NCBI RefSeq assembly: GCF_018035235.1
Contig: NZ_WPCV01000005.1
Location: 62,001-126,000, forward strand
Length of the DNA: 64,000 nucleotides
Origin: Citrobacter sp. On2M
GTDB taxonomy: Bacteria; Pseudomonadota; Gammaproteobacteria; Enterobacterales; Enterobacteriaceae
Direction: 5' to 3'
The notes beneath the pieces are model-generated. The model saw only the letters and a program-made list of their open reading frames with translations, ran no database searches and had not been told where the DNA came from. Numbering within the stretch: position 1 is the stretch's first letter; every line of letters begins with the position of its first letter. Below, piece by piece: positions 21,741 through 32,623 of this stretch. The position numbers and the translations under genes were made by a program.

Positions 21741-22307
21741 ATGAATAAAGTAAAAGGGTTGCTGGTTATTGCCCTTACATTCGCCCTGGCAGCATGTGCT
21801 TCAATTCCTGAGAATATCAAAGGTAATAATCAATCCGATATTCAAAAAAACTTTATCTCAGTGCACAACCAACCCGGGTTATATACCGGTCAGCAGGCTC
21901 GCTTTGGGGGTAAAGTCATCAATGTGATTAACACCAAAACAGATACGCTACTGGAAATCGCCGTATTACCACTGAACAGCTACGCCAAACCACAAATAGA
22001 CGCGAACTATCAGGGACGTATACTTGCCCAGCAGAAAGGGTTTCTCGACCCGGTAAACTACAGAAACCATTTCGTGACTATTTTAGGGACAATTCAAGGG
22101 GAAGAACCTGGATTCATCAATAAGGTCCCGTACAACTTTGTGAAAGTTGATTTACAGGGCATTCAGATTTGGCATTTAACAGATACTGTCAACACCACCT
22201 ATAACCTGTGGGATTACGGATACGGCGCGTTCTGGCCTGAACCGATGTGGGGAGGCCCCTACTACACAAATACCGTAACCGAGGTTACACCGGAGCTCGT
22301 AAAATAA
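21741..22307 (+). CDS. slp: Outer-membrane lipoprotein Slp
   Basis: A 188-residue lipoprotein with signal MNKVKGLLVIALTFALAAC; the Cys of LAAC is the lipidation site. The body matches E. coli Slp nearly residue by residue (NIKGNNQSDIQKNF, PGLYTGQQARFGGKVINVIN, KVPYNFVKVDLQGIQIWHL, NLWDYGYGAFWPEP). Slp is induced by starvation and acid in E. coli, where it opens the acid fitness island. Here it is followed by mdtEF, so slp and mdtEF, which lie at opposite ends of that island, are adjacent, and dctR, hdeAB, gadE, gadW and gadX are missing from this spot. Confidence 0.95.
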   Translation: MNKVKGLLVIALTFALAACASIPENIKGNNQSDIQKNFISVHNQPGLYTGQQARFGGKVINVINTKTDTLLEIAVLPLNSYAKPQIDANYQGRILAQQKGFLDPVNYRNHFVTILGTIQGEEPGFINKVPYNFVKVDLQGIQIWHLTDTVNTTYNLWDYGYGAFWPEPMWGGPYYTNTVTEVTPELVK

Positions 22308-22582
22308 CCCCGTAGTTAGATGGCGCTAATCTATCGCGGAATTTGATACAGGCGAAACATCCTTATCATCTTCCGTGTTTATCTTATTGCGCCATGCCAC
22401 TGAATGCGATCCTTCGGCTAACATGAATTCTTCCTGTTACCTATAATTTACCCGCTAGCACTTTAGCGAAAAATGGGCTTTAGTCGTCTCATGCCTGAGC
22501 ATCTTTTGTTATTTATCGATCACTCTCCCATCCTGCATGCAATACAAGAACATTTGTGTTTACACATTATTCAGGGATAACT

Positions 22583-23740
22583 ATGAACAGAAAATGCTTA
22601 CTCTTGATACCATTATTTTTTAGTAGCGTCATTATCACCGCCTGCGATAATAAACCAGCAGTAAAAAACACCGCCATAGAGCCCGAAGTCGGCGTTATTA
22701 CCTTAGCGCCCTCTTCAGTAAATATTAAAAGTGAACTTCCGGGCCGCGCGGTTTCATTCGAGATCGCCGAAATCCGGCCTCAGGTTGGCGGGATAATCAT
22801 AAAACGCAATTTTATTGAGGGTGATAAAGTCAGTAAAGGAGCATCACTGTATCAAATTGATCCTGCTCCGCTGCAGGCGCAACTGGATTCAGCCAAAGGC
22901 GCACTGGCAAAGGCATTAGCGACGGCCAATAATGTGCGTCTCACATTAAATCGGCAGTCAGCGTTACTTAAATCTAATTACGTCAGCCGTCAGGACTACG
23001 ACACAACACGCTCCCAGCTGAATGAAGCGCAAGCCAATGTCGCTGTCGCCAAAGCGGATCTTGAGCAGGCCACCATCAACCTTCGTTACGCCAATGTCAC
23101 CTCGCCGATTGATGGCATCAGCGGTAAATCATCCGTGACCGTGGGTGCCCTGGTCACTGCTAACCAGCAAAACGCACTGGTCACCGTTCAGCGTTTGGAT
23201 CCTATTTATGTTGATTTAACGCAGTCAGTACAAGACTTCTTACGCCTGAAAGAAGAGAAAGCCAACGGCAAAATCGCCCAGCAACAGGGCAAAATTCCTG
23301 TTGAGCTGATGCTGGAAAACGGCAAACCCTATCGTCATACCGGTACGCTTGAGTTTGCCGATCCCGCCGTCGATGAGACCACTGGTTCGGTAACCCTGCG
23401 CGCGGTGTTCCCGAATCCTGAAGGTGAAATTTTACCCGGGATGTATGTCACGGCGTTGCTGGACGAAGGCAGTCAGCAGAACGTTTTGATGGTCCCCCAA
23501 CAAGGGGTTACGCATAACGCGCAAGGAAAAGCCACCGTGCTTCTCCTTGACCAGGAAAACGTGGTGCAACTGCGCGAAATAAACGCCGTGAAGGCCGTTG
23601 GCAATCAATGGCTGGTGACCGCAGGTCTACGTCCCGGCGATCGGGTCATTGTGTCCGGACTACAACGAATTCGTCCGGGAGTCAAAGCCCGGGCCCTCCC
23701 TTCAAAACTGCCCCCCCCTGATGCGGTAACAAAACAGTAA
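22583..23740 (+). CDS. mdtE: Membrane-fusion lipoprotein MdtE of the MdtEF-TolC pump
   Basis: A 385-residue periplasmic adaptor. The start at 22583 gives MNRKCLLLIPLFFSSVIITAC, a lipoprotein signal with Cys21; an in-frame start nine codons earlier would spoil it. The sequence follows E. coli MdtE closely: EIRPQVGGIIIKRNFIEGDKV (lipoyl half-motif), SNYVSRQDYDT, VQRLDPIYVDLTQSVQDFL and GDRVIVSGLQRIRPG. It bridges MdtF to TolC. mdtF starts 28 bp downstream. In E. coli the pair is controlled by GadE, EvgA-YdeO and ArcA and exports drugs and toxic metabolites under acid and anaerobic conditions. Confidence 0.95.
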   Translation: MNRKCLLLIPLFFSSVIITACDNKPAVKNTAIEPEVGVITLAPSSVNIKSELPGRAVSFEIAEIRPQVGGIIIKRNFIEGDKVSKGASLYQIDPAPLQAQLDSAKGALAKALATANNVRLTLNRQSALLKSNYVSRQDYDTTRSQLNEAQANVAVAKADLEQATINLRYANVTSPIDGISGKSSVTVGALVTANQQNALVTVQRLDPIYVDLTQSVQDFLRLKEEKANGKIAQQQGKIPVELMLENGKPYRHTGTLEFADPAVDETTGSVTLRAVFPNPEGEILPGMYVTALLDEGSQQNVLMVPQQGVTHNAQGKATVLLLDQENVVQLREINAVKAVGNQWLVTAGLRPGDRVIVSGLQRIRPGVKARALPSKLPPPDAVTKQ

Positions 23741-23768
23741 TATTTCAGGTATTAAGGACACTCTCTTC

Positions 23769-31700: not shown

Positions 31701-32004
31701 CATACTGCTTTATAACAATTTTTAGATTGAGAATCTTTTGCATCAGCGCCAGATAGTCTGCGTTGACTCCCCGATAATATTCACCGCTATTTTGATAAAC
31801 AATGGGGGAAACTTCCGGTAACCAGGTGCCAACAACCAAGGTTTTCTTATGCGCTAACCAGTTTGTTTCTTCCTTGTTCAAGCTGATATTCTGTACTGAG
31901 GTATTATAGTTACTTTTTAGCTCAACTTGCCGAGCCGAGCTTACACCCGTAGACAACCCGATGGTAAATATGACCATCAAAAAAATAAACAAGCGTGCCA
32001 GCAT
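28762..32004 (-). CDS. evgS: Hybrid sensor kinase EvgS lacking the PAS domain
   Basis: A 1080-residue unorthodox sensor kinase; E. coli EvgS has 1197 residues. Signal peptide about 1-24; two periplasmic SBP_bac_3 (Venus-flytrap) domains, about 50-280 and 297-515; membrane helix about 534-556. A short coiled linker (557-595) leads straight to the H-box SMSHELRTPVSS with His606. HATPase boxes are at Asn720-Asn724, DTGCG 756-760 and GSGLGL 784-789; the receiver Asp is 894 in LITDVNMP; the HPt His is 1025 in LHRLHGSA. In E. coli a PAS domain of about 115 residues lies between membrane and H-box; here it is absent, while the flanking sequence aligns well. The phosphorelay residues are all intact. 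It begins four bases after evgA. Confidence 0.93.
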   Translation of the reverse strand: MLARLFIFLMVIFTIGLSTGVSSARQVELKSNYNTSVQNISLNKEETNWLAHKKTLVVGTWLPEVSPIVYQNSGEYYRGVNADYLALMQKILNLKIVIKQYDNEKEALAALASNDVDTLITQLSRRQEIGGHLLRTSALLTTWPTLVTSLKNTMLPLTSGHQVSVACVRDSPFLDVIQDAFPEAKVSFYDDEYQAMASVVNDENQYYIGNNITSSHCISRYFSQSLVITHYFDQQEQYNYFVVKEDQPVLRTILDSFITSISNEIHMQVMQNWLNRGNLAYLNAPIPFTHQEKAWLEKKHTIRILINPDYPPYTLVDRSGELRGILGDLLNIVHLQTGLDFEPILADSKSEQMKIISGEDWDMYPTITLTTQNQRNSTFSDPLMNVAFVMITSREEAADSLLNKPIRIALPAGHALESDLRQRYPQAAWVDADTGSVAMSMLREGKVDAAIATELSARYMVDHYYQKNMHFFRLPDMPGASVSFAVSPREPMLKSVMDKALQAIPPREILQMTEKWSKISNTQVDIWSRYSKQFYQLVVFALLLIAVSLIWGISLSREVNKRKQSQRLLEEQLHLKEALSQELEIEKNKAIEATKAKSRFLASMSHELRTPVSSIVGFLELLSSSELSPAQRKEAIALTGATAQSLLGLIGKILDVDKIESGKYQVVPQWTDLSQLLALQCHSFDALARQKGITLACTSQLPANERVFVDQQALRQIITNLVGNALKFTEQGSIHVTARLTPDEENHGTLIITISDTGCGISEEEQAGLFHRYAQGCCGRQQTGSGLGLFICKELVTLMGGTLELMSIPSQGTTFTITLPVETARQSVVPDGDTPGTLLPLPCLSILIADDNPTNRLLLKRQLNTIGYSVDEACDGEEAEAKLAKKSYDLLITDVNMPKKDGFDLAASLRQQQPHLQIWGLTASALPQSRDRCLQNGMNLCLFKPVSIQTLTHELSKIETGYSSPGAIRHLKFNVLTENTGGDRTLMNEILETFREATLSDLQAAEKAVREDEPQLFLRALHRLHGSAQILGITALQTLCKPFESMRHEDIPLAVCQEALQKIVAVMREIEIEIDSLISH

Positions 32005-32008
32005 TACT

Positions 32009-32623
32009 CTATCCTATTTTATTTCTCTGCGCATAATCATAAATTTCCATTAATGATGAGCAATCTAATTTTTCCATTAAACGACTTTTATAGGTGCTTA
32101 CTGTTTTATTACTGATGTTCATTTTGCTGGCAATAGTGCTGTAATCCATACCGTTAAGAATATAGCGCAACACTCTCATTTCCTGGGTTGACAACGTATC
32201 AAGCTTATCCTGCTCGCTAACAGATGAACCAGTGAAATGCTCAAGGGAAAAGGGGAAATAGCTATAGCCATTTTTTGCTGCTTCGATTGCGGCGAGAATA
32301 TTATTCATACCTTCTTTTTTACTCACAAATCCGTTAGCGCCATATTCGGCGCTACGTTTGCCGTAAAAAAATTCATTTTTGGCTGAAATGATAATGATTA
32401 CACCAGCATAGTGTCGCTTTCGCAGTTGCTCCAGTACTTCGATGCCGCTGATCCCCGGAATATCCACATCAATAATCAGCAGTTCAGGTTTCATTTTTTC
32501 AACGGTTTGAACCACTTGCTCCCCGCTGTCAAGCTCGGTGGTTACGGTAATACCATTAGTGTCGAGCAAATTGCGGATGGCTATGCGAGCTAATGGGTGA
32601 TCGTCAACGATTATCGCGTTCAT
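32009..32623 (-). CDS. evgA: Response regulator EvgA
   Basis: A 204-residue NarL/LuxR-type response regulator, the partner of EvgS. The receiver domain (1-120) has the acidic pocket VDDHP, phospho-acceptor Asp52 in IIDVDIPG, and conserved Lys in VSKKEG. The C-terminal LuxR helix-turn-helix is around residues 140-200 (LSTQEMRVLRYILNGMDYSTIASKMNISNKTVSTYKSRLMEKLDCSS). It is close to E. coli EvgA over its full length. In E. coli it activates safA, ydeP, yfdX, emrKY and the ydeO-gadE acid cascade. It is first in an evgA-evgS operon; a near-consensus EvgA box lies 238 bp upstream. Confidence 0.95.
   Translation of the reverse strand: MNAIIVDDHPLARIAIRNLLDTNGITVTTELDSGEQVVQTVEKMKPELLIIDVDIPGISGIEVLEQLRKRHYAGVIIIISAKNEFFYGKRSAEYGANGFVSKKEGMNNILAAIEAAKNGYSYFPFSLEHFTGSSVSEQDKLDTLSTQEMRVLRYILNGMDYSTIASKMNISNKTVSTYKSRLMEKLDCSSLMEIYDYAQRNKIG

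What the first reader, a model, noticed from the sequence alone, without database searches (positions are those of the whole stretch)
21741..32623. Compact slp-mdtEF-hdeD-yfdX-evgAS island: regulator and effectors of acid/drug resistance in one block
In E. coli K-12, slp, hdeD and mdtEF lie in the acid fitness island, while evgAS and yfdX lie more than a megabase away. Here they form one 11-kb block, without gadE, gadX, gadW, hdeAB or emrKY. This may be an ancestral or re-assembled EvgAS regulon in which EvgA controls acid and efflux genes directly instead of through YdeO and GadE.
Basis: partly seen in the sequence, partly recalled or inferred. Interest (0 to 1): 0.7.

Follow-up and report, generated by a model that had tools for sequence, protein, structure and literature searches.

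The report
Self-contained EvgAS acid module, Citrobacter version
A Citrobacter chromosome keeps an acid-sensing switch next to the acid-protection genes it probably controls, a layout already described in Klebsiella, with a drug pump placed beside it that the switch probably does not control directly.

Summary
The block is real: slp, mdtE, mdtF, an hdeD-like gene, yfdX, evgS, evgA. The genome has a second, K-12-like acid island on another contig, with gadE, hdeA, hdeB, hdeD, slp and another mdtEF; no YdeO orthologue was found. The core evgAS-yfdX-hdeD(-hdeB) is a conserved module, shared with Buttiauxella and the published K. pneumoniae kvhAS-yfdX-hdeDB locus. slp-mdtEF adjoins it only in Citrobacter; in strain FP75 the two lie on different contigs. 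The kinase lacks the K-12 PAS (redox-switch) region and groups with Klebsiella-type kinases. The EvgA box occurs exactly once in this genome, before evgA, with weaker boxes between hdeD and yfdX; slp and mdtE have none above chance. Over 18 genomes, all 11 exact boxes (9 genomes) lie before evgA, yfdX, hdeD or frc. Direct EvgA control of yfdX/hdeD is therefore likely, of mdtEF unlikely. No binding or expression data exist. An hdeB-like neighbour is mostly deleted in this strain.

The parts
21741..22307 (+). slp, outer-membrane lipoprotein; 80% to K-12 Slp, 49% to the second-island copy
22583..23740 (+). mdtE, RND periplasmic adaptor (74% to K-12 MdtE)
   Evidence: just below the NCBIfam MdtE cut-off (687 against 738 bits)
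23769..26885 (+). mdtF, RND permease (87% to K-12 MdtF, 75% to the second-island MdtF)
27078..27164 (-). 28-codon in-frame remnant of an hdeB-like gene, directly after hdeD; signal peptide and core are missing
   Evidence: full frame of 105-108 codons in L004-L008
27184..27858 (-). hdeD-like DUF308 membrane protein (29% to K-12 HdeD, 49% to the K. pneumoniae L016 copy)
27923..27938 (.). EvgA-box-like palindrome, 2 mismatches to TCYTACANNTGTARGA
27941..27956 (.). EvgA-box-like palindrome, 1 mismatch; 1 of 1000 shuffles of the region does as well
28061..28687 (+). yfdX, periplasmic acid-stress protein family (53% to K-12)
28762..32004 (-). evgS/kvhS-type hybrid kinase, 1080 aa: two SBP-type (Venus-flytrap) domains, HisKA, HATPase, receiver, Hpt; no PAS segment
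32009..32623 (-). evgA response regulator (70% to K-12, 78% to K. pneumoniae)
32862..32877 (.). EvgA box, exact match, about 240 bp before evgA; the only exact match in the 5.04-Mb genome

Best explanation
The block is two modules side by side. Module 1, evgA-evgS-yfdX-hdeD(-hdeB), is a self-contained acid-stress system. EvgS, a periplasmic Venus-flytrap hybrid kinase whose membrane helix runs straight into the kinase through one helical linker, phosphorylates EvgA through its His-Asp-His relay. EvgA binds palindromic boxes before evgA (self-amplification) and between the divergent yfdX and hdeD genes, inducing periplasmic and membrane acid-protection proteins without a YdeO or GadE step. Module 2, slp-mdtEF, is transcribed towards hdeD, has no EvgA box, and is probably not a direct EvgA target; its closeness to evgAS is a Citrobacter arrangement. 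Shown by sequence: gene content, missing PAS segment, boxes and their rarity and repetition across genomes, conserved module order, separate contigs in FP75. Inferred: acid as the signal, DNA binding, induction, and the lack of direct control of mdtEF.
For: The two exact K-12 sites (before frc and yfdX), read on both strands, give TCYTACANNTGTARGA; K-12 evgA/emrK, safA-ydeP and ydeP upstream fit the 18-base form with 1-2 mismatches. In G000 it hits exactly once, before evgA; one mismatch adds hdeD-yfdX and one site inside a coding frame. Shuffles as good: 0 of 1000 (evgA), 1 of 1000 (hdeD-yfdX); for hdeD-yfdX of 14 other loci, 13 had at most 1 of 300 and L017 had 9. Exact sites in 18 genomes: one each in 7 of 7 Citrobacter with evgAS, 0 of 2 without it; all 11 sites in 9 genomes lie before evgA, yfdX, hdeD or frc, among them a K. 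pneumoniae hdeD-hdeB pair. The stretch ISNKTVSTYK of the EvgA DNA-binding domain is identical in window and K-12. Module order shared by 14 loci of three genera. slp and slp-mdtE regions: best 4 and 5 mismatches, reached by 178 and 774 of 1000 shuffles; 4-7 in 6 relatives. No box within 2 mismatches in the gadE island stretches L064, L065.
Against: No binding or expression data. A scan cannot exclude weak EvgA sites at slp or mdtE. The pattern was first written by eye with the window site in view. At one mismatch the backwards control also gives 3 sites in G000. In Buttiauxella and K. pneumoniae the best evgA upstream matches have 2-3 mismatches, and 4 of 4 Buttiauxella genomes, G119, G056 and G173 have no exact box, although G119 and G056 carry E. 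coli-type EvgAS. In K. pneumoniae RcsB binds the yfdX-hdeDB region (PMC6394985). Four of 7 Citrobacter genomes with evgAS lack GadE at E 1e-25 yet have mdtEF, which leaves mdtEF without a named activator.
Confidence: 0.66

Rival explanations
1. One reading: EvgA directly controls the whole block, including slp and mdtEF, as one compact regulon.
For: Adjacency is kept in 6 different Citrobacter genomes; GadE was not found in 3 of those 6; in E. coli EvgAS regulates efflux pumps (PMC5573083, abstract; the route through YdeO-GadE is the cascade named in PMC4222967, abstract start).
Against: No EvgA box above chance before slp or mdtE in the window; 4-7 mismatches in 6 relatives. mdtF and hdeD converge, so the EvgA-box promoter cannot transcribe mdtEF in sense. 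FP75 has slp-mdtEF on another contig than evgAS, and G023 and G168 have mdtEF without an EvgS at the thresholds used.
Confidence: 0.15
2. The block is mainly under Rcs control, as shown for K. pneumoniae yfdX-hdeDB-hdeB1, with EvgAS a secondary input.
For: RcsB binds and regulates the Klebsiella yfdX-hdeDB and kvhAS-hdeB1 intergenic regions (PMC6394985, passages). A 13-of-14 match to the RcsAB box, a consensus recalled from memory, overlaps the edge of the EvgA box at 32853-32866; 0.01 matches expected in the window.
Against: That site is not kept: 2 mismatches in L004 and L005, none within 2 in the other 12 loci scanned.
Confidence: 0.12
3. A synteny accident without functional linkage: genes gathered at a variable chromosomal site.
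For: The block's neighbours differ between Citrobacter species; block and right half have GC 48-49% against 56% in the first 20.6 kb.
Against: Core order kept over three genera, with boxes at matching places between yfdX and hdeD.
Confidence: 0.07

Closest known systems
K. pneumoniae kvhAS-yfdX-hdeDB(-hdeB1) locus (PMC6394985)
   Same: Same core genes and order; the K. pneumoniae ATCC 13883 kinase (L016) is in the same clade, 1080 aa and colinear; deletion of yfdX, hdeD or hdeB1 lowered exponential-phase acid survival in that paper
   Different: slp-mdtEF added; hdeB mostly deleted in this strain; an exact EvgA box before evgA; Rcs input untested here
E. coli EvgAS regulon
   Same: EvgA 70% identical; same palindromic box; a box before yfdX in both
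   Different: Kinase lacks the PAS segment; no YdeO orthologue found; exact boxes confined to one locus
E. coli acid fitness island
   Same: Shares slp and mdtEF (80% Slp, 74% MdtE, 87% MdtF)
   Different: No gad genes in the block; the counterpart with gadE is the second island on contig C3
PAS-less BvgS-family kinases with a helical X linker (PMC5829827)
   Same: Two flytrap domains joined to the kinase by one helical stretch
   Different: Those studied were natural linkers placed in BvgS chimeras; this kinase is untested

Membership tests
KvhAS-type acid locus | evgA-like and evgS-like genes next to yfdX, hdeD and hdeB in fixed order | tested here: met
   hdeB is a remnant in the window, full frame in L004-L008
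KvhAS-type acid locus | kinase groups with the K. pneumoniae kinase of that locus | tested here: met
   17-row clade, SH-aLRT 100, quick tree, careful search not finished; that L016 is the paper's kvhAS locus is my match by gene order
E. coli EvgS (PAS-containing) | PAS segment between membrane helix and HisKA, with redox cysteines C671 and C683 | tested here: not met
   K-12 residues about 586-693 have no counterpart; cysteine numbers from PMC8174306. Pfam reports no PAS even in K-12 EvgS, so this rests on alignment and length
EvgA | NCBIfam EvgA model above its cut-off; conserved DNA-binding stretch | tested here: met
   368 against 251 bits
E. coli acid fitness island | gadE with hdeAB, hdeD, mdtEF and slp | tested here: not met
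   not met by the block; met by the second island on C3, in a genome without GadA/GadB at E 1e-60
Direct EvgA regulon | EvgA binding and EvgA-dependent expression | not testable with these tools
   boxes only

The most novel reading that the evidence does not exclude
Citrobacter, Buttiauxella and Klebsiella carry the self-contained form of the EvgAS acid response: a kinase without the PAS redox switch, so it should answer acid with or without oxygen, driving only its own neighbours. E. coli would then be the derived case, with a PAS-gated kinase and dispersed targets reached through YdeO and GadE.
Probability: 0.3. Interest if true: 0.6.

Novelty: new variant of a known kind. Interest (0 to 1): 0.4.

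Why it matters
Two papers on EvgS state that EvgAS is confined to E. coli and Shigella (PMC8174306) or has no close orthologues in other species (PMC5706723), while naming KvgAS and BvgAS as homologues (passages). Here an EvgA 70% identical to that of K-12, with the same DNA box, sits beside acid genes in Citrobacter, with relatives in Buttiauxella and Klebsiella. It offers a natural kinase without the PAS region to test the E. coli redox-switch model, and a one-locus regulon to compare with the E. coli cascade.

Tried and rejected
GadE box before mdtE: I suspected one by eye (a 12-base run at 22504). The consensus gives 12 of 20 and 335 of 500 shuffles do as well, so I dropped it. slp upstream (217 of 300) and hdeD-yfdX (253 of 300) are also at chance; evgA upstream reaches 15 of 20 (14 of 300 shuffles) and was not pursued.

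RcsAB box beside the EvgA box: good in the window, not kept in relatives.

FP75: I first took slp and evgA to lie about 20 kb apart and fetched L156-L158; one search shows they are on different contigs (C1 and C12), so those stretches bear only on slp-mdtEF.

Relaxed box TCYKACRNNYGTMRGA (4 sites in G000, 3 in the locus, 1 in a coding frame, control 0) was written after seeing the sites, so it is not independent evidence.

Conservation of the box in the evgA upstream alignment of 7 Citrobacter ranks only 31 of 327 windows; 1 distal window is as good.

Duplicates: G061 and G202 give identical places, likewise G019/G203 and G165/G209; each pair is counted once in statements about genomes. The tree used 34 kinases chosen; other rows were left out, among them L121, whose frame has one stop.
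Full report
What is there. The window lies in G000, contig C6. It is a Citrobacter by its EvgA, which is 97-99% identical to those of C. braakii, C. werkmanii, C. portucalensis, C. youngae and one C. amalonaticus. The seven genes have full frames and are rightly named by family, with two qualifications. The hdeD-like protein is 29% identical to K-12 HdeD and falls just under the NCBIfam HdeD cut-off (184.6 against 189 bits). EvgS scores 993 bits against a cut-off of 1995; K-12 residues about 586-693 have no counterpart.

A K-12 GadE search of the genome finds a 52% orthologue at C3:875829-876356. Around it lie a DctR-like gene, yhiD, hdeB, hdeA, hdeD, mdtF, mdtE, gadE and slp: a second acid island. 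Its MdtF is 75% identical to the window's, whereas K-12 MdtF is 87% to the window's and 77% to the second one. So the window's mdtEF is the more K-12-like one. A K-12 YdeO search gives 7 partial AraC-type hits of at most 40%. GadA/GadB is absent at E 1e-60 from this genome and from 5 of 5 other Citrobacter with the compact block.

The hdeB remnant. Between hdeD and mdtF, L004-L008 carry an hdeB-like gene with a full frame of 105-108 codons; the window keeps a 28-codon in-frame remnant. I describe it only.

Comparative order. The core evgA-evgS-yfdX-hdeD is present in all 14 loci L004-L017. An hdeB-like gene follows hdeD in 13 of 14 (no hit in L009). A gadA/gadB-like gene and a gadC-like gene follow in the 7 Buttiauxella loci and in Citrobacter FP75, not in K. 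pneumoniae L016. Within the stretches held, mdtEF follows only in the window and L004-L008, with slp beyond it. In FP75 slp-mdtEF lies on another contig than evgAS. Citrobacter G023 and G168 have mdtEF (84% MdtE) but no EvgS at the thresholds used. Hence the compact block looks like a join of two modules inside Citrobacter; which state is older was not settled. In a sample of 198 family genomes, own included, 6 have this kinase at E 1e-250 and 5 have this MdtE at 1e-170.

GadE is accessory. Among the 7 distinct Citrobacter genomes with evgAS, 3 have GadE at E 1e-25 (own, G199, G202) and 4 do not.

The kinase. In a quick tree of 34 EvgS-family proteins, the window kinase sits in a 17-row clade with Citrobacter, Buttiauxella, K. 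pneumoniae, G153 and G173, of 1076-1094 aa; its sister is the 4-row clade of 1197-aa E. coli-type kinases (both supports 100). Three other kinases of 1060-1066 aa branch outside both, so absence of the PAS segment is not unique to this clade and its history of gain or loss is open. The careful tree was not finished. The linker is one run from membrane helix to HisKA, as in PAS-less BvgS relatives, where antagonism of two coiled-coil registers sets kinase or phosphatase mode (PMC5829827, passages). In E. coli the PAS region is the proposed redox switch (PMC8174306, passages). The receiver Asp and Hpt His are present (D894, H1022).

EvgA boxes. I wrote TTCYTACANNTGTARGAA from a recalled consensus and from the window, then checked it: five K-12 upstream regions (emrK-evgA, frc, yfdX, safA-ydeP, ydeP; targets as recalled) fit with 0-2 mismatches. 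The two exact K-12 sites alone, read on both strands, give the 16-base core. In G000 the core has one exact site, before evgA, and three within one mismatch: two in this locus and one inside a coding frame at C6:452912; the backwards control at one mismatch also gives three. Over 18 genomes exact sites occur in 9, 11 sites in all; the control gives 0 in 17 genomes and 1 in G173. The 11 sites lie before evgA (six Citrobacter and G139), between hdeD and yfdX (G201), before frc and before yfdX (G139), and before an hdeD-hdeB pair beside an emrY homologue (K. pneumoniae ATCC 13883). The 4 Buttiauxella genomes tried, G119, G056, G173, G023 and G168 have none.

slp and mdtE. Best matches are 4 and 5 mismatches in the window, within the range of shuffles, and 4-6 and 5-7 in six relatives. 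GadE boxes there are also at chance. So mdtEF regulation here is open; in K-12 the operon is driven by the long gadE promoter under H-NS, ArcA and GadE (PMC3708157, passages).

Literature. The K. pneumoniae kvhAS-yfdX-hdeDB-hdeB1 locus is published with deletion phenotypes and RcsB binding; KvhAS control of yfdX/hdeDB is mentioned there as a speculation (PMC6394985, passages). Searches for EvgA+Citrobacter+mdtEF, evgAS+Citrobacter+yfdX, evgS+Buttiauxella and Citrobacter+acid fitness island listed no paper whose title or abstract start describes this Citrobacter locus; I saw listings only for those, except papers named above, and most subscription papers are not held.

Verdict. A real, conserved locus; a variant of a known Klebsiella arrangement. 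Direct EvgA control is supported by sequence for evgA, yfdX and hdeD, and not for slp and mdtEF.

Noticed in passing
window 27078-27164: An hdeB-like acid chaperone gene, with a full frame in five related Citrobacter loci, survives only as a 28-codon in-frame remnant here.
   Followed up: yes
G000:C3 about 860-877 kb (L064, L065): A second acid island with gadE and its own, more divergent mdtEF and slp, in a genome without GadA or GadB at E 1e-60.
   Followed up: partly
L175 (K. pneumoniae ATCC 13883, box at 1501): The only exact EvgA box in that genome lies before a second hdeD-hdeB pair beside an emrY homologue, about 0.2 Mb from the kvhAS-type locus.
   Followed up: partly
L009, L011-L015, L017, L010: In Buttiauxella and Citrobacter FP75 the evgAS-yfdX-hdeD module is followed by gadA/gadB-like and gadC-like genes (about 58-61% and 70-72% to K-12).
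   Followed up: partly
L121, L122: In two other genera evgAS relatives with E. coli-length kinases lie next to gadC-like or gadA-like genes; the kinase frame of L121 has one stop inside.
   Followed up: no
window 32853-32866: A 13-of-14 match to the recalled RcsAB box overlaps the edge of the EvgA box before evgA; not kept in relatives.
   Followed up: yes
G000:C6:618857-620512: Part of a second EvgS-like kinase, in a frame of about 1064 aa, in the same genome.
   Followed up: no
window 42382-57574: A polysaccharide synthesis and export cluster by Pfam: glycosyltransferases, a Wzz-like protein, an export protein, a bacterial sugar transferase.
   Followed up: no
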